A stretch of 64,000 bases of DNA from Paractinoplanes ferrugineus (lineage in GTDB: Bacteria > Actinomycetota > Actinomycetes > Mycobacteriales > Micromonosporaceae), in NCBI RefSeq assembly GCF_016862195.1, contig NZ_BOMM01000028.1, positions 124,001 through 188,000 on the forward strand, in the 5' to 3' direction. The notes under the pieces were generated by a model that saw only the letters and a list, made by a program, of their open reading frames with translations, ran no database searches and had not been told where the DNA came from. Both the position numbers and the translations under genes were made by a program. Shown here in pieces: positions 18,369 to 30,993 of the stretch; within the stretch, counting starts at the first letter, position 1, and each line of letters opens with the position of its first letter.

Positions 18369-21300
18369 TCAACCGAGGTACGCGTGGGCGTTCGGATCGC
18401 CGTACACGGTATAGGCGAGCCACGTCGGGTCCATGTCGTCCTGGATGGCCTGGCGGGCGGCCAGGGTGGCCTGGCCGAGGGTCTCGCCCGCCATCAGCCC
18501 GGCGTAGAACTCCTCGGCGAACGCCTGGGCGGTGCTGCTGCGGACGTCCCAGAGGGTGCCCACGAACGCGCCCGCCCCGGCCGGCAGGAACTGTTGCGCC
18601 CAGCCCATCATCTGGGTGAAGTGGGGCACCGCACCGGCCGACTGGCACGCGTTGATGAAGACCAGCGGGCGGTTCGCGGCCAGCAGTTCCTTGGCCTTCA
18701 CCGCCTCGAGCATGAGCGGCGAGAACTCGCCGCCGAGCATCGGGATGGCGCCGCCCGAGCCGTCGTCGCGGTAGGTGGCGTGGCAGGCGAAGTGGGTCAG
18801 CCCGGCCTGCCCGCTGTCGAGCAGGTCGAGCAGGTCGCCGATGTCGGTCACCAGCAGCGGCTCGGCCTGCGCCGACACGATCCGGTGGATGGCCCGGAAC
18901 TCGGCGTCGGCGTTGGCCGGCGCCCGGTTGCCCTGCACGAACCGGGCGTGCCCGAGGTTGATCTCGCGGGAGCGGTCGGTGTTGAACACGGTACGGGTCA
19001 CCGGGAACTGGCTGACCAGGAAGCCGGCGTCGTGGTCGCGGGTCATCGGGTAGAGCAGCTCCCACGGCAGGTTGTCGTTGCCGGTGGCGATCGAGAACGT
19101 CCGGATGGTGCCGTGCAGGCGGAGGTACTGCTCCCGGATCGCCTCGGGCACGATACCCAGCCACAGCGAGACCCCCACGCTGCGCAGCCACTCGCGGGCG
19201 ATCGGCGGGGTGTACGCGGGCGGCGACGCGTCCCGGGCGAAGCGCCGCAACATGCTCAGCGCCCGCTCGAGGACGCCGCTCGCGTCGGCGGCCACGGTCA
19301 CCGTCACCGGGTCGTACACGCATTGGTTGTTGTGCAGCTGGAAGCTGTAGCGCCCCTCCGAGCGCCGCACCTGCAGGGTCACCGCGCCGTCGTCGGGTCG
19401 CACGCCGTCGAGACCGGCCGACTTGGTCGCCGCCCCCAGGTTGGGTCCCCGGTCGGTGACCGACACCTCGAAGACGAGCTTGCCGAGGTACGTTCCCCCG
19501 GCCCAGGCCGTGACCTGGACGGTACGGACGTCGACGCCGGTCGCCCGGAACACGAACCGCACCGGTTCCGAGTCGGCCGCCGCCGGGACCCGGAGCACCT
19601 GCTGCTCCGGCCCGAGCGGGACCAGGCCGGTGGAGGCGTGCGCGACGATCGTCACCGGGGAGCCGTCGGCCGGGATCGGCCACGGCTTCATCGGCGCGCT
19701 CCGGGTAGCCTCGTCGGCCGGGGCGGCCAGCGCGACGTAGACGATCAGGCTGACCTCGGTGTCCTCGCGCACCTGGGCCGGCATCTGGCCGACGAGCACC
19801 CGATGCGGATCGGCTTGCCGCTCCGGCTCGGCCCCGCCGCCGGTGACGGCCGGCTCGAGAACCGTGGTGCCGGGGGTCGACTCCGGCGGAATCGCCTCGT
19901 CGGGCGGGGCGGCGTAGGCCAGGCCGCCGACCGTCACCGGCGGCTCGACCCGCACCTTGATCCCGCTGTAGGTGGCGAGCAGGGAGATCAGCGCGGGGGC
20001 GTCGATCAGCTCGAGCGGCTGGCCGGCGGTCGCCTCGTAGGCCTCCGGCTCGATGCCGCCCAGCGAGATCAGGATGCCCTTGGTGGCGCCGGCGGCGGCG
20101 ACCGCGGCGGCCAACCGGCGGACCGCCCGGGGGCCGGCGGGCAGCGTGCGCGTCGCGTGGACCACCACCGGGCCGCCGAAGATCGGCCGTGGGTCGGTGG
20201 CCCGCCACGTCGTGCCGGCAGCGGTGCGGGTGGCCGCCTCCATCTCCAGGCCCATCACCCCGAACAGGTCGCTGAGCTGCCGCTCCCACGCCTCGTCGCT
20301 GATCGTCATCAGGTTGGGCCGCTCGTCGAGGTCGGCGAGGACGTTGAACTCCTCGGCGAAGTCGAGGTCGGCCTCCCGGTCGAAGTCGATCTTCGCGTCG
20401 ACCGCGATCAGCTCGTCGGGGGCCGGCGACAGCGCGCCGTGCAGGTAGGTCAGGCAGGCCACCGGGTCGACCCGGCGCAGCTTGATGCCGGCGAACGTGT
20501 CCCGGTCGGTCTGCACCGAGACGAGCACCGGCCGCACGAACCGGCCGGTGCGCCGGTCGACCGCCTCGACGATGCCGTTCAACGACACCCGCCGCACGAG
20601 CCCGCCCCGGTCGGCCTCGATGATCTCGTGCACCGTCCGCAGGGCGACCTGGGCGATCACCCCGCAGTAGCGGCGGCGGATCTCGGCCTCCTCGCGCGGC
20701 ACCACGGCCAGGTCGTCGCGGGCCCGGTCGTAGCGGTACTCCCTGACCACCGGGATCACCTCGACCGGCGGCAGGTGGTACTCGACCAGCAGATGCTTCT
20801 GGTGGGGCAGGTAGGCCAGCCGGAAGTGCTGCGGGAAGTCGTCGGGATAGACGGAGTTGCCGAGCACCATCGCGAAGTACTCCACCACCGACGCCGGTTC
20901 GGCGGCGGCGACCGCGGCCGCGAACCGGTCGACCTCGGCGTTGTAGGCGGCCACCTTGGCCTCGTGCTTGCCGACCCGCTCGTCGTACGCCCGGCGGCGC
21001 TGCGCCAGTTGCCGCTTGCGCCGCTCCTCGGCCTGTTCCCACCGGCTGACCGCGTCCTCGAAGGCCCGCCGGGCGCTTGCCGTGTGCTGCTGGTGCAGCC
21101 GCTCCCGGCCGAGGATCTTGCCGACGCCGCGCGGCAGCGGCGGCAGGAAGCTGTCCCAGCTGGGGCGCGGATGGGCCCGGCCGAGCGGCCCCGGGTCGAA
21201 CGGCGGCACGGTCAGCGGCTTCTTGAACAACTGCAGGTCGATGTGGTCGTCGACGTCCAGGGTGGACAGCAGCAGCGCGTCGAGGTCGGCGAGCCGGGCC

Positions 21301-21524
21301 TGGATCTCGGCGTTGGCCGCGGCCGCGTCGGCGGTGCGGGCCTGCGCGTACAACCGGCGGTGCTCGCGCTGCCGGTCCGCCTCGGAGGCGGCGTGGTGCG
21401 CGGCGGCGATGGCCAGGTCGGCGTTGCGGCGATTCAGTGCCCACCGCCGCGCCGCGTTGTCGGCCCGCTGGTCGTCGGCGGCCAGTCGGGCCTGCTCGCG
21501 CTGCATGTCCCGGATGATGCTCAT
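18369..21524 (-). CDS. CHAT-domain protease with N-terminal coiled coil and degenerate Mrr-like domain
   Basis: A 1,051-residue multidomain protein. Residues 1-90 and 140-205 are Arg/Ala/Glu-rich and likely coiled coil. Residues about 412-525 match the Mrr-type restriction endonuclease fold (WERQLSDLFGVMGLEME, ATDPRPIFGG, GATKGILISLGG, PLELIDAPALISLL), but the catalytic Asp and QxK positions read GTT and HAT, so the nuclease looks dead. Residues about 590-690 look like a beta-sandwich. The C-terminal CHAT domain keeps the protease His (HFACHA, near 915) and Cys (FINACQSAG, near 960). I chose the ATG at 21524. It likely acts as an inducible effector with the trypco2 partner downstream and the 2H phosphoesterase gene upstream. 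Confidence 0.8.
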   Translation of the reverse strand: MSIIRDMQREQARLAADDQRADNAARRWALNRRNADLAIAAAHHAASEADRQREHRRLYAQARTADAAAANAEIQARLADLDALLLSTLDVDDHIDLQLFKKPLTVPPFDPGPLGRAHPRPSWDSFLPPLPRGVGKILGRERLHQQHTASARRAFEDAVSRWEQAEERRKRQLAQRRRAYDERVGKHEAKVAAYNAEVDRFAAAVAAAEPASVVEYFAMVLGNSVYPDDFPQHFRLAYLPHQKHLLVEYHLPPVEVIPVVREYRYDRARDDLAVVPREEAEIRRRYCGVIAQVALRTVHEIIEADRGGLVRRVSLNGIVEAVDRRTGRFVRPVLVSVQTDRDTFAGIKLRRVDPVACLTYLHGALSPAPDELIAVDAKIDFDREADLDFAEEFNVLADLDERPNLMTISDEAWERQLSDLFGVMGLEMEAATRTAAGTTWRATDPRPIFGGPVVVHATRTLPAGPRAVRRLAAAVAAAGATKGILISLGGIEPEAYEATAGQPLELIDAPALISLLATYSGIKVRVEPPVTVGGLAYAAPPDEAIPPESTPGTTVLEPAVTGGGAEPERQADPHRVLVGQMPAQVREDTEVSLIVYVALAAPADEATRSAPMKPWPIPADGSPVTIVAHASTGLVPLGPEQQVLRVPAAADSEPVRFVFRATGVDVRTVQVTAWAGGTYLGKLVFEVSVTDRGPNLGAATKSAGLDGVRPDDGAVTLQVRRSEGRYSFQLHNNQCVYDPVTVTVAADASGVLERALSMLRRFARDASPPAYTPPIAREWLRSVGVSLWLGIVPEAIREQYLRLHGTIRTFSIATGNDNLPWELLYPMTRDHDAGFLVSQFPVTRTVFNTDRSREINLGHARFVQGNRAPANADAEFRAIHRIVSAQAEPLLVTDIGDLLDLLDSGQAGLTHFACHATYRDDGSGGAIPMLGGEFSPLMLEAVKAKELLAANRPLVFINACQSAGAVPHFTQMMGWAQQFLPAGAGAFVGTLWDVRSSTAQAFAEEFYAGLMAGETLGQATLAARQAIQDDMDPTWLAYTVYGDPNAHAYLG

Positions 21525-21583
21525 GCACGTCCCCGCCCGTCGGTGGAGACTACGACTGTATCCACCGACGACAACGGCACCGT

Positions 21584-22051
21584 CTACTGAAGATCCACGA
21601 CGGTCCGGGTCAGCGAGTCGTAGCTGCGCGCGGATTCGCACCGCCCGGCCGCCGGCGCCAGGCCGGTCAAGGCCTCGAGCAGGGCCGGGCGGTGCCCGGG
21701 CGGGACCTTCAGGGCGAGGCTGACGTGCGGCATCCAGTCGGCCGGGGACGGCCACGGATTGCGCAGCGCCGACCAGGCGGTGGCGTGGATGTCGCGCAGC
21801 GCGGCGGTCGGGGTGACCGCCCAGATCAGGGCGCGGCCGAGGAACCGCACCACGCCGAGCTCGATCGGCACCGGCAGCGGCAGTGGCGGCAGACCGTCGA
21901 TCGAGGCGGCGGTGACCACCGTCAGGTGCGGCCGGTTGGTCGGGTGCGGGTGGCCGGCCAGGCTGGGCAGGCCGGCGGCGCGCAGGCGGCCCCACACCTC
22001 GCGTACGTCGTGCTCGAGCTCCGGGTCGAGCAGCAGTTCAACGGTACGCAC
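21584..22051 (-). CDS. 2H phosphoesterase (2'-5' RNA ligase/LigT-like) protein
   Basis: A 155-residue protein with the two His motifs of the 2H phosphoesterase superfamily: RPHLTVV near residue 41 and MPHVSLAL near residue 108, symmetrically placed as the fold requires. Family members open cyclic phosphodiesters in RNA or small nucleotides, or ligate RNA. It ends 59 bp before the CHAT gene on the same strand, so it may be part of the same locus, and an RNA- or cyclic-nucleotide-processing role in a conflict system would fit. The context is suggestive only. The 100 bp upstream to the broken permease hold nothing recognisable. Confidence 0.82.
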   Translation of the reverse strand: MRTVELLLDPELEHDVREVWGRLRAAGLPSLAGHPHPTNRPHLTVVTAASIDGLPPLPLPVPIELGVVRFLGRALIWAVTPTAALRDIHATAWSALRNPWPSPADWMPHVSLALKVPPGHRPALLEALTGLAPAAGRCESARSYDSLTRTVVDLQ

Positions 22052-27162: not shown

Positions 27163-28107
27163 GTGACCACTCCGGAGTGGGACGAGCGGCACGAGATCTA
27201 CCGCGCCGACCTGCTCGCCCACTGCTATCGCCTGCTCGGCTCGTTCGACGAGGCCGAGGACCTCGTGCAGGAGACGTTCCTGCGGGCCTGGCGGGCGGCC
27301 GACCGCTACGATCCGGCCCTGGCCTCGGTCCGCACGTGGCTGCACCGGATCGCGACGAACGTCTGCCTGACCGCGCTGCGCGGGCGGGCCCGCCGTCCGC
27401 TGCCCAGCGGCCTCGGCCCGGCCGGCGGCGATCCGGGGGCACCGCTGACGCCGAGCCTCGACATCCCGTGGCTCCAGCCGTTCCCGGACGCCCGCCTCGG
27501 CGATCCCGCCGCCACCGTCGAGCAGCGCGCCGGGCTGCGGCTGGCCCTGATCGCCGCCCTGCAGACGCTGCCCGCCCGGCAACGGGCCGCGCTCGTGCTC
27601 CGCGAGGTGCTTCAGCTGCCCGCCACCGAGGTGGCCTACGCCCTCGACAGCACGGTGGCCTCGGTGAACAGCAGCCTCCAGCGCGCCCGCGCGACCCTGC
27701 GCGAGAGCGGTCCGTCGGTCGAGGAGCTGCGCGAGCCGGCCGATCCGGGCGAGCGCGCGGTCGTCGAGCGTTACCTGGTGGCGTTCGAGGCGGCCGACAT
27801 CGCGGGCCTGACCCGCCTGCTGGCCGACGACGTGGCCCTGGAGATGCCGCCGGTCGACCTGTGGCTCGCCGGTCGCGCCCACTACCGCGAGTTCATCGAG
27901 CGGGTGTTCGCCATGCGTGGCGTCGGCTGGCGCCTGCTGCCGGTGCCGGCCAACGGGGGTCCGGCCCTGGCCGCCTACGCCCCCGGGATGCGGCCGCACT
28001 CGGTCCAGCTCTTCGAGGTGGCGGGCGGCCTGATCCGGCGTTGCGTGTCGTTCGTCGACCCGGCGCTGGTCGAGCGGTTCGAGGGCGCGAAGTCGTACCG
28101 CTCGTAG
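27163..28107 (+). CDS. ECF sigma factor with C-terminal SnoaL-like domain
   Basis: A 314-residue RNA polymerase sigma factor. Region 2 is in residues about 15-85 (LLAHCYRLLGSFDEAEDLVQETFLRAWRA, SVRTWLHRIATNVCL) and region 4 in about 140-190 (ALQTLPARQRAALVLREVLQ, AYALDSTVASVNSSLQRARA). A SnoaL-like domain follows at about 205-310 (ERYLVAFEAADIAGLTRLLADDVALEMPP). Such fused tails are proposed to replace an anti-sigma factor as regulator, and the layout matches the SigJ/TIGR02960-type ECF factors. GTG start. It is divergent from the reductase-like gene, a likely target. The stress signal is unknown. Confidence 0.9.
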   Translation: MTTPEWDERHEIYRADLLAHCYRLLGSFDEAEDLVQETFLRAWRAADRYDPALASVRTWLHRIATNVCLTALRGRARRPLPSGLGPAGGDPGAPLTPSLDIPWLQPFPDARLGDPAATVEQRAGLRLALIAALQTLPARQRAALVLREVLQLPATEVAYALDSTVASVNSSLQRARATLRESGPSVEELREPADPGERAVVERYLVAFEAADIAGLTRLLADDVALEMPPVDLWLAGRAHYREFIERVFAMRGVGWRLLPVPANGGPALAAYAPGMRPHSVQLFEVAGGLIRRCVSFVDPALVERFEGAKSYRS

Positions 28108-28122: not shown

Positions 28123-30849
28123 CTACGCGCCGCCGGTGCCCGACGTCTCCCCCTTCCCGCTGGAGGGAGCGACGCCCGGGCCGGAGGGTTCGCCGGCGCC
28201 GGGGGACGGCGCCCCGGTGGAGCCCGACGGGGTCGGCGTGGACTCCGGCGACGCCCCCGCCGACCCGGCCGGCGACGGCGTCGGGGAGCCCGCCGGCGAA
28301 GGCGGGACCGACGGCCCGGCCGCCGGTTTCGCCTTGCTGGTCGTCTCCGGGAAGTCGAAGGTCCAGCCCTCGGCGAGCAGCTGCGGGATCAGCTTCTCGA
28401 GGGCCTGGACGGTCTGCTTGCGCACCCCGCCGCCGTCGTGCACCAGTACCACCGCCCGCGGCGTGAGCTGCTGGTGGATCCGGGTCGCGATGGTGTCGGC
28501 GCCGGGCAGCATCCAGTCGTCCGGGTCGACCACCCAGCCCAGCGGCGTGTGCCCGGCCAGCGCACCCACCTTCGCCGACGGGCCGAAGTCGCCGTACGGG
28601 GCGCGGTAGTAGGTGACCGTCGACCCCGGTGCGGCGGCCGCGATGGCGGTGTCGGTCTCGGCGATGTCGGCCCGGCTCCTCGCCTCCGACACGATGCCGA
28701 GGTCGTCGTGGTGCATCGAGTGGTTGCACAGGCGGTGGCCGTCGGCGACGATCCGCCGCACCAGCTGCGGGTACCAGGTCACGTTCTCGCCGACCATGCA
28801 GAAGGTGGCCTTGACGTGGTATTTCGCCAGCAGGTCGAGGACCGCCGGGGTGTCGTCGGACGGGCCGTCGTCGAAGGTCAGCGCGAGCCGCTTGCCGGTG
28901 TGCTCGGTGTGCACCACCGGCTCGTACCCGGCGGCGGGGGCCTGCAGGCCGGCGGCCTTGTCCGGGTTCTTGCCGGTGTCGTGCGAGCGTCCGGCGTCGC
29001 CGGTGTCGACCCGTCCCACGTGGGCCGGCGCGGGCAACTTCCGGACCGGCTGCCCGGTCAGGGCCGACCGGGTGAAGCTCTGCCAGAGGTGGGCGGGCAT
29101 GGTGTCGCCTTCGATGCGTACGCCATGGGCGTCGCGAAGCGGCCCGGGTTTCGCCTTGCCGATCCAGATGACGCTGGCCAGCTCGGGGGTGTAACCGGCC
29201 ATCCACGCGTCCTGGTTCTCCGGGGTGTCGCGCCACTGCTGGGTGCCGGTCTTGCCGGCGGCCGGGCGGCCCGGGGTGAAGCCGTTCTCCGACACGACGC
29301 TCTGCAGCACCGTGGTGACGTCGGCGGCGATCCTCGGGTCGAGTGCGGTGGTGCCCCCGACGGCCACGGTCGCCCCGGTCACCGACTGCACGAAATGCCG
29401 CTCATGACGTACGCCTCCGGCCGCCAGCGTCGCATAGACCGTGGCCAGGTCGGACGGGGTGACCGGGTAGCGCCCGAGGGCGATGTCGCCCCGGGTGCGG
29501 CCGGGCGCCGGGTCGCCCTTGACGTCGACCAGCGACCGCCGGCCGTCGTACTTGTCCGGCACCCCCAGACGGACCGCCATGTCCCGCACCCGATCGGCGC
29601 CGATCTCCGCGGTCACCGCGTAGAACGGGGTGTTCAGCGAGTCGACCATCGCCTGCTGCAGCGTGCAGTCGGCGCAGTGCAGGCCGTCGTGGTTGCGCAG
29701 CGGCACCCCGCGGTCCGGGAACAGCCGGGGCGAGCTGCCGTCCCAGCGCGAGCGGTAGGAGATCCCCTGGCGCAGCGCGGCGGCGAGCACTATCGGCTTG
29801 AACGTGGACGCGGCCGGGTGCAGCGCGTCGGCGTCGTCGAAGTAGCCGCTGCCGTGCTCCCCGCCGTAGTAGGCGCGTACCCCGCCGGTCGCCGGGTCGA
29901 GCGCGACGAGCGCCGCCTGCAACCCGGCCGGCTGGCCGCGCAGCTGCGCCGCCACGGTGGTCTCGGCGGCCCGCTGCGCGGTGGCGTCCAGGGTGGTGAC
30001 CACCGTCAGGCCCGCGGTGTGCAGTTGCTGCGAGGTGATGCCCCGGCCGGACAGCTCCCGCTCGACCTGGTCGACGACGAGGCCGAGCGGGCCGCCGATC
30101 GGCGAGCCGGCCGGCTGCACCTTCGGGTAGGCCAGCCCGCGCCGGTCGGCCGCGGCGACGATCCAGTTCCAGCGGCGCCGGGCGGCGGTGGCGTCGTGCG
30201 CCGGGTCGAACCCCCACGGGTCCTTGACGGCGGCGGCGATGACCGCGCTCTGGGCGAAGTCCAGCCGGTCCGGCGTGACTCCGAAGTAGGCGTTCGCGGC
30301 GGCCGCGATCCCGTACGCGCCGCGCCCGTAGTAGATCGTGTTCAGGTACCGCTCGAGGATGACGTCCTTGGTGTACTGGCGTTCCAGGTTCACCGCGAGG
30401 GCCAGCTCGTGCATCTTCCGGTCGACGGTCACCTCCCGGTCGAGGAACGCGTTGCGGACGTACTGCTGGGTGATCGTCGAAGCACCCTGGTGCTCGCCGG
30501 ACGCGTCGGCCACGATCGCCCGCGCCACCCCGCGCAGCGACACCCCGGCATGGTCGTAGAAGTCCCGGTCCTCGGCGGCCAGCACGGCCCGGCGAAGGTC
30601 CGGGGAGACCGCCGAGAGGGGTACGTCGCTGTGGTCGGTCGCGCCGAGGCGGGCCAGGATGGTGCGGCCGTCGCGGTAGTAGAGGACCGACGCCTGCGGC
30701 TGGCGGGCCGCCCCGGGCACCGGCACCGATTCGACGTACGCCTCGGCGGCGCCGACCCCGGCACAGGACCAGAACGTCAGCAGGACCAGGACGGTGGCCG
30801 CCGCCCGGCGCCATCGGACGGTTCGCTTCTGCGGAATTTTCACCAGCAC
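28123..30849 (-). CDS. Class A penicillin-binding protein fused to NodB-type polysaccharide deacetylase
   Basis: A 908-residue three-catalytic-domain cell-wall enzyme. A signal-anchor (about 14-34) is followed by a GT51 glycosyltransferase (about 70-240) with catalytic Glu93 in AAEDRDFYDH and STITQQYVRN. The transpeptidase (about 290-600) has Ser348 in STFK, S404-L-N and K533-T-G-T. A NodB deacetylase (about 650-835) has LTFDDGPSDD (Asp660/661), the metal-binding His710 and His714 in NHSMHH, RAPYG at 749-753 and the VHD His804-Asp805. A 65-residue Pro/Ser/Gly tail ends the protein. All catalytic motifs look intact. It would polymerise, cross-link and deacetylate peptidoglycan or another glycan outside the membrane. 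One continuous frame, so the fusion is real in this sequence. Confidence 0.92.
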   Translation of the reverse strand: MLVKIPQKRTVRWRRAAATVLVLLTFWSCAGVGAAEAYVESVPVPGAARQPQASVLYYRDGRTILARLGATDHSDVPLSAVSPDLRRAVLAAEDRDFYDHAGVSLRGVARAIVADASGEHQGASTITQQYVRNAFLDREVTVDRKMHELALAVNLERQYTKDVILERYLNTIYYGRGAYGIAAAANAYFGVTPDRLDFAQSAVIAAAVKDPWGFDPAHDATAARRRWNWIVAAADRRGLAYPKVQPAGSPIGGPLGLVVDQVERELSGRGITSQQLHTAGLTVVTTLDATAQRAAETTVAAQLRGQPAGLQAALVALDPATGGVRAYYGGEHGSGYFDDADALHPAASTFKPIVLAAALRQGISYRSRWDGSSPRLFPDRGVPLRNHDGLHCADCTLQQAMVDSLNTPFYAVTAEIGADRVRDMAVRLGVPDKYDGRRSLVDVKGDPAPGRTRGDIALGRYPVTPSDLATVYATLAAGGVRHERHFVQSVTGATVAVGGTTALDPRIAADVTTVLQSVVSENGFTPGRPAAGKTGTQQWRDTPENQDAWMAGYTPELASVIWIGKAKPGPLRDAHGVRIEGDTMPAHLWQSFTRSALTGQPVRKLPAPAHVGRVDTGDAGRSHDTGKNPDKAAGLQAPAAGYEPVVHTEHTGKRLALTFDDGPSDDTPAVLDLLAKYHVKATFCMVGENVTWYPQLVRRIVADGHRLCNHSMHHDDLGIVSEARSRADIAETDTAIAAAAPGSTVTYYRAPYGDFGPSAKVGALAGHTPLGWVVDPDDWMLPGADTIATRIHQQLTPRAVVLVHDGGGVRKQTVQALEKLIPQLLAEGWTFDFPETTSKAKPAAGPSVPPSPAGSPTPSPAGSAGASPESTPTPSGSTGAPSPGAGEPSGPGVAPSSGKGETSGTGGA

Positions 30850-30968
30850 ACCCGGTTAGACGGGGCGGCGGCGTGGTTTGTGGACAGGTAATCTTGGGTA
30901 ACCGGACGATCACTCTGATTACCGGCATGTTGACCAGCCGTTTCGGCGTGGTTGCGACCATCGACGAT

Positions 30969-30978
30969 GACATATGTC
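30969..30978. promoter_or_regulatory. Perfect 10-bp palindrome upstream of mycothiol-family gene
   Basis: GACATATGTC, ending 15 bp before the ATG at 30994. An AT-rich palindrome is unusual in this GC-rich DNA and could be a repressor site or overlap a -10 region. No matching copy was noticed elsewhere in the window. Confidence 0.3.
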
Positions 30979-30993
30979 GCAAACTTAGGGGTT

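What the first reader, a model, noticed from the sequence alone, without database searches (positions are those of the whole stretch)
28123..30849. Single-chain fusion of glycosyltransferase, transpeptidase and NodB deacetylase
All catalytic motifs of GT51, the penicillin-binding transpeptidase and the CE4 deacetylase are intact in one 908-residue frame. A class A PBP that also deacetylates would couple synthesis of peptidoglycan with its modification, and could bring lysozyme resistance to the nascent strand. I know of no well-studied enzyme of this architecture.
Basis: partly seen in the sequence, partly recalled or inferred. Interest (0 to 1): 0.75.

Follow-up and report, generated by a model that had tools for sequence, protein, structure and literature searches.

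The report
Cell-wall synthase fused to sugar deacetylase
A soil actinobacterium and its relatives encode one membrane protein that appears able to build cell-wall strands, link them and strip acetyl groups from their sugars; the three-part protein is real and conserved, but I found no report of anyone testing what it does.

Summary
The ORF is on the minus strand (30849 to 28123, 908 codons, GTG start). It joins a GT51 glycosyltransferase, a penicillin-binding transpeptidase and a CE4/NodB deacetylase, all above Pfam cut-offs, with intact catalytic motifs. It is not an assembly error: thirteen other genomes of Micromonosporaceae (Actinoplanes and allies, Dactylosporangium) carry the same fusion at 54-77% identity. 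The deacetylase halves form one clade, which fits one old fusion inherited with its PBP. The CE4 and GT51 catalytic residues are kept in 14 of 14. The transpeptidase motifs are damaged in 2 of 14: Dactylosporangium vinaceum lost the nucleophile Ser and Lys, and a MAG lost the KTG lysine. Two close paralogues lack NodB (L014) or carry a beta-lactamase-like domain in its place (L015); both sit in genomes that also keep a fusion. Best explanation: a membrane-anchored class A PBP that de-N-acetylates GlcNAc of the strand it polymerises, by a tethered CE4 domain. Deacetylation, its substrate and any lysozyme resistance are inferred, not shown. The parts are known; the combination is a new variant. 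Literature searches listed no description. Distribution elsewhere is poorly tested, because the whole-genome search tool did not complete.

The parts
28123..30849 (-). whole fusion gene, 908 codons plus stop, GTG start (possible alternative GTG start at residue 3, base 30843)
   Evidence: homologues in 13 loci
30727..30828 (-). N-terminal membrane helix, residues 8-41 in the model, after a basic stub (topology inferred)
   Evidence: AF2 helix H8-41; sequence
30154..30657 (-). GT51 peptidoglycan glycosyltransferase domain, residues 65-232 (E93, E156 and most motif residues invariant)
   Evidence: PF00912 E 3.1e-56; conservation in 14 rows; solved relatives
29176..29913 (-). penicillin-binding transpeptidase domain, residues 313-558 (S348xxK351, S404xN406, K533TG535)
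   Evidence: PF00905 E 6.2e-26; alignment to PonA1 5crf
28918..29049 (-). junction, residues 601-644; residues 624-640 under pLDDT 50, taken as a flexible tether; G612, G617, D618, G620 invariant in 14 rows
28336..28917 (-). CE4/NodB deacetylase domain, residues 645-838, all five family motifs present
   Evidence: PF01522; NodB-only model pLDDT 89.5 matches CE4 structures
28126..28335 (-). Pro/Ser-rich C-terminal tail, residues 839-908, disordered in the model (845-908 under pLDDT 50) and poorly conserved

Best explanation
It is a class A penicillin-binding protein with a third, C-terminal catalytic domain. The N-terminal helix anchors it in the membrane with all three domains outside. GT51 polymerises lipid II, the transpeptidase cross-links the strand, and the CE4 domain, on a flexible tether, removes N-acetyl groups, most likely from GlcNAc of the strand just made. 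The wall it builds would therefore be partly de-N-acetylated as it is laid down, and less open to muramidases. Shown here: architecture, intact motifs, conservation, shared inheritance. Inferred: topology, activity, GlcNAc as target, timing, protection.
For: Three domains in one frame above Pfam cut-offs. The same architecture in 13 other genomes, 54-77% identity. Catalytic residues of CE4 (D660, D661, H710, H714, R749, D775, D778, W779, H804, D805) and of GT51 (E93, D94, E156 among others) invariant in 14 of 14. NodB halves of all 14 form one clade apart from 23 stand-alone rows (100/100; the stand-alone rows come from the same query-seeded scan); the first splits (L013, then L011) agree with the PBP tree. 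In close pairs NodB dN/dS is near that of the PBP part and well below that of the tail: L005/L006 0.08 v 0.47; L007/L008 0.20 v 1.18. [quoted passage not shown] Nearest solved sequences are PgdA GlcNAc deacetylases. In L011 the transpeptidase has lost its Ser and Lys while GT51 and CE4 residues are kept. Both non-NodB paralogues found (L014, L015) lie in genomes that also keep a fusion (L009, L004).
Against: No activity or wall chemistry was measured. Fold does not fix the substrate: acetylxylan esterase, PgdA, ArCE4 and PdaC lie within about 3 Z units, and by Foldseek the first two hits are an acetylxylan esterase and PdaC. Relative placement of the domains is uncertain (pTM 0.57). The window gene shares no neighbour with the relatives, so context gives no functional support. 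A close paralogue without NodB exists and nests among the fusions (L014), so the module can be lost from a copy. NodB dN/dS is not lower than that of the PBP part in every pair: L001/L002 0.42 v 0.25-0.35, win/L009 0.73 v 0.51-0.53. CE4 rows L009 and L010 read RAPF, not RAPY.
Confidence: 0.55

Rival explanations
1. The CE4 domain acts on another glycan of the envelope (a wall polysaccharide, poly-GlcNAc-like or exogenous chitooligosaccharide); the PBP only places it at growth sites.
For: CE4 fold neighbours include acetylxylan esterases and the chitin-active ArCE4; the best NCBIfam match of this part is NodB chitooligosaccharide deacetylase, below cut-off, 163.6 of 240 bits.
Against: The partner in all 14 members is a peptidoglycan polymerase; nearest solved sequences are PgdA proteins; [quoted passage not shown]
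Confidence: 0.2
2. The CE4 domain deacetylates MurNAc (PdaC-like), for example towards a lactam or another wall form in sporangia.
For: PdaC is among the closest folds.
Against: The PdaA-type signature (second Asp of TFDD missing) is absent. From recall, this family of bacteria carries N-glycolylmuramic acid, which would lower the supply of MurNAc.
Confidence: 0.1
3. The protein is cut in the linker, and a free deacetylase is released; the fusion is only a secretion and dosage device.
For: Residues 624-640 are disordered in the model and variable.
Against: The post-transpeptidase residues G612, G617, D618 and G620 are invariant in 14 of 14, though they lie before the disordered part. No cleavage signal was looked for with a dedicated tool.
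Confidence: 0.1
4. Artefact: mis-assembly or frameshift joining two genes, or a dead NodB remnant.
For: None found.
Against: 13 other species' genomes, including one complete chromosome (L011), carry it; CE4 catalytic residues are intact in 14 of 14; codon periodicity is unbroken.
Confidence: 0.01

Closest known systems
Mycobacterium tuberculosis PonA1 (class A PBP, 5crf/5cxw)
   Same: best solved sequence match (query 253-613), 36-38% identity in the structural alignment; from recall also GT51 then TP
   Different: the solved chain covers the transpeptidase region only; no deacetylase domain in PonA1 (recalled)
PgdA peptidoglycan GlcNAc deacetylases (S. pneumoniae 2c1g, B. cereus BC1960 4l1g/5o6y)
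   Same: CE4 domain; best solved sequence matches of this part; 33-36% identity in structural alignments
   Different: separate proteins of 463 and 275 residues (PMC5855634 Table 2), not joined to a peptidoglycan polymerase
Separate actinobacterial NodB proteins (Thermobifida, Streptomyces, Saccharothrix, Catellatospora and others)
   Same: nearest sequence relatives found of the deacetylase half, 48-54% identity in the 13 rows
   Different: a separate clade; no GT51-TP part in the frame: 201-365 codons between stops, 656 for one frame of L055; not scanned for other domains
L014 and L015: same PBP subfamily without NodB, or with a beta-lactamase-like domain
   Same: PBP part 64% and 56% identical, same Micromonosporaceae clade
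   Different: L014 has no Pfam domain after TP; L015 carries PF13354 Beta-lactamase2 at residues 776-886

Membership tests
Class A penicillin-binding protein | GT51 domain followed by transpeptidase domain in one chain | tested here: met
   PF00912 190 bits (cut-off 27), PF00905 91.7 bits (cut-off 22.1)
Class A penicillin-binding protein | SxxK, SxN and KTG motifs (recalled definition) | tested here: met
   window protein and 11 of 13 relatives complete, counting KSG in L007/L008 as KTG; L011 lacks S and K of SxxK and the S of SxN; L013 has MTG
Class A penicillin-binding protein | N-terminal membrane anchor, catalytic domains outside | tested here: inconclusive
   hydrophobic helix 8-41 after basic residues; no topology tool or experiment
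NCBIfam PBP_1a_fam TIGR02074 and the 22 other NCBIfam models listed | score above the curated cut-off | tested here: not met
   352 v 508.75 bits; 0 of the 23 listed models reach their cut-off
CE4 (NodB) deacetylase | five motifs TFDD, H(S/T)xxH, RxPY, DxxD(W/Y), I(V/I)LxHD as in PMC5855634 | tested here: met
   all five in the window protein (motif 5 reads VVLVHD); RxPF in L009 and L010
CE4 (NodB) deacetylase | metal-dependent deacetylase activity | not testable with these tools
   needs an assay
PgdA-type peptidoglycan GlcNAc deacetylase | acts on GlcNAc of peptidoglycan | not testable with these tools
   sequence nearest to PgdA among solved structures, substrate unproven
PdaA-type MurNAc deacetylase | second Asp of TFDD missing (PMC5855634) | tested here: not met
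   D661 present in 14 of 14
[quoted passage not shown]
   H710-x3-H714 in the window protein, both His in 14 of 14

The most novel reading that the evidence does not exclude
A trifunctional wall synthase that writes de-N-acetylation into each strand as it is polymerised, within a Micromonosporaceae PBP subfamily whose C-terminal catalytic module is exchangeable (NodB, beta-lactamase-like, none). In Dactylosporangium vinaceum it has become a two-activity polymerase-deacetylase with a transpeptidase predicted dead.
Probability: 0.3. Interest if true: 0.72.

Novelty: new variant of a known kind. Interest (0 to 1): 0.52.

Why it matters
The well-studied peptidoglycan deacetylases are separate proteins (PMC5855634 Table 2; otherwise recalled), and as far as I recall it is not settled when and where they act relative to strand synthesis. 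A single chain with both activities would make 'deacetylated while made' directly testable, and the natural variants (transpeptidase predicted dead, NodB missing, beta-lactamase-like replacement) offer ready controls. If active, it would also be a one-step way to install muramidase resistance in newly made wall.

Tried and rejected
Assembly error: rejected (13 other genomes). Dead NodB: unlikely (CE4 catalytic residues intact in 14 of 14). Conserved operon with the window's neighbours: 17 neighbouring window genes (my own codon-bias calls) had no hit at E 1e-8 in any of 15 loci, each holding about 6 kb on either side. Among the relatives, L001-L003 share one context and L004-L009 another; the window, L010, L012 and L013 share none. 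L011's only shared clusters are with L014. Plasmid records: 0 of 820 matching records cover 80% of the query in one place, so the fusion was not found there. One clade of all 14 fusion PBP halves: rejected with L014 counted as an outsider (p-AU 0.0096), not rejected when L014 is added or set aside (p-AU 0.333 each; these two groupings were named after the tree was seen). I read this as loss of NodB in L014; re-gain is not excluded. Promoter, tandem-repeat and RNA tools were not used, as they do not bear on the claim. Whole-genome searches for paralogues and wider distribution failed.

Full report
Observation. The reported span is one open frame on the minus strand, 30849 to 28123, 908 codons with a GTG start. 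Pfam finds Transgly (65-232), Transpeptidase (313-558) and Polysacc_deac_1 (650-759), all above their curated cut-offs. None of the 23 NCBIfam models listed reaches its own cut-off; the best is PBP_1a_fam with 352 of 508.75 bits, so no NCBIfam model names this protein. Codon-position GC runs unbroken across the junction.

Anatomy. A helix at residues 8-41 follows a basic stub, the usual N-terminal anchor of class A PBPs (recalled, not tested). The full model, made from 38 rows (14 fusions, 9 of 44 PBP-only loci, 15 NodB rows), has mean pLDDT 79.9 and pTM 0.57, with residues 624-640 and 845-908 under 50: folded parts, a loose tether before NodB, then a Pro/Ser-rich tail. Relative domain placement cannot be read from it. 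The first 50 of 1226 Foldseek matches of the whole model are PBP or peptidoglycan glycosyltransferase entries. The NodB part modelled alone (25 rows; pLDDT 89.5, pTM 0.88) matches CE4 structures: Z 26.4 acetylxylan esterase 7fbw (rmsd 1.9, 182 aligned), 24.8 BC1960 4l1g (2.3, 189), 23.9 SpPgdA 2c1g (2.5, 188), 23.7 PdaC 6h8l (2.3, 184). Foldseek ranks 7fbw and PdaC first. The fold shows CE4 but not the substrate.

Motifs. The transpeptidase and CE4 catalytic residues are all present in the window protein and align with PonA1, SpPgdA and BC1960. GT51 motif residues (names recalled) align with PBP1A structures. By the descriptions in PMC5855634 (passages; [quoted passage not shown]

Family. A pattern-seeded scan of a collection of 84,980 species genomes found 153 relatives, of which the best 80 (79 loci) were shown; 73 lower ones I did not see, and records of the window's own genome may be left out. 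From I sorted the 79 as 13 fusions, 44 PBP-only and 22 NodB-only loci. All 13 fusions are Micromonosporaceae: Actinoplanes (7), Winogradskya (2), Dactylosporangium (2), Nucisporomicrobium and Symbioplanes (1 each), 54-77% identical to the window protein. The scan needs an exact eight-residue seed, so absence elsewhere is weak evidence. Plasmid records gave 0 of 820 with 80% cover. At the positions listed, GT51 is invariant in 14 rows except F97 to Y in L012 and L013; CE4 is invariant except Y752 to F in L009 and L010 and V803 to L in L013. Transpeptidase motifs are broken in two: L011 has ATFA for STFK and GLN for SLN; L013 has MTG for KTG. L007 and L008 have KSG.

History. The NodB tree (14 fusion rows, 23 stand-alone rows from all 22 NodB-only loci; further copies in L026, L055 and L057 were left out) separates fusions from stand-alone proteins at 100/100. 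The PBP tree (14 fusions, 12 of 44 PBP-only loci) puts fusions, L014 and L015 in one clade (98/98) but needs three label changes. A second tree with 8 of 44 (L021, L022, L025 and L029 dropped as long or distant) again nests L014 among the fusions, and leaves L013 and L015 unresolved. Holding the 14 fusions as one clade is rejected at p-AU 0.0096; with L014 added or set aside it is not (0.333). The simplest reading is one fusion event, later loss of NodB in L014, and L015 as a sister or replacement form with Beta-lactamase2. Both of these paralogues are from genomes that also hold a fusion: L014 with L009, L015 with L004. The order of the first splits, L013 then L011, agrees in both trees; the place of L009 differs. 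dN/dS: the tail exceeds GT51, TP and NodB in seven of seven pairs where it could be computed, of eight tried; the rank of NodB against the PBP part varies.

Context. A sigma factor gene with a SnoaL domain ends 15 bases from the end of the fusion gene, tail to tail, and an MDMPI/DinB-like gene diverges upstream, so the gene seems to stand alone. None of 17 neighbouring window genes has a relative in the 13.8-14.7 kb of 15 loci. Relatives fall into at least two shared contexts. Context therefore does not suggest function.

Mechanism. Most likely it is a PBP that polymerises and cross-links while a tethered CE4 domain de-N-acetylates GlcNAc of the same strand. A published hint that PBPs and deacetylation are linked is that Listeria lacking PBP B1 showed more fully acetylated dimer (PMC4320753, passages). 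The L011 protein, with broken transpeptidase motifs but intact GT51 and CE4 residues, suggests that the polymerase-deacetylase pair is what selection keeps there; one genome is thin evidence. Activity, substrate and benefit remain to be shown.

Literature. Ten searches of the held library were run; five aimed at the architecture, the rest at wall chemistry, deacetylases or beta-lactamase fusions. I read the listings; no title or abstract start shown describes a GT51-transpeptidase-NodB protein, and PF00912 with PF01522 gave no paper. I saw passages only of PMC6767563, PMC12632261, PMC4320753, PMC9146315 and PMC12440217, and passages, outline and two sections of PMC5855634. The library lacks most subscription journals, so this is not proof of absence. 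The relatives' genomes are public, so their proteins are probably in sequence databases already (not checked).

Verdict. It is a new variant of a known kind, worth a bench test.

Noticed in passing
L015:5881-8700: Paralogue of the same PBP subfamily in Nucisporomicrobium flavum carries a Beta-lactamase2 domain (residues 776-886) where the fusions carry NodB; the same strain also has a NodB fusion (L004).
   Followed up: partly
L011:5815-8670: Dactylosporangium vinaceum fusion has lost transpeptidase Ser and Lys (ATFA) and the Ser of SxN, while GT51 and CE4 catalytic residues are intact.
   Followed up: partly
window 18369-21995 (-): 1208-residue protein matches a type IV restriction enzyme model over 165-681 (PADLOC mREase_IV, 1.6e-71) and ends in a CHAT domain 976-1199: a nuclease-protease fusion that looks like phage defence.
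   Followed up: partly
window 30952-30982: Short inverted repeat TTGCGAC/GTCGCAA with 17 bases between, beside the divergent start regions of the fusion gene and the MDMPI-like gene (read by eye); possible operator, possibly chance.
   Followed up: no
L002:5764-6000: The Actinoplanes cyaneus fusion has a long N-terminal stretch of repeated Glu/Pro/Lys units before the membrane helix, not seen in the other 13; the start codon is uncertain.
   Followed up: no
window 27163-28107 (+): Sigma-70-family factor (regions 2 and 4, ECF-like) with C-terminal SnoaL-like domain, ending 15 bases from the end of the fusion gene, tail to tail; not found near the relatives.
   Followed up: partly
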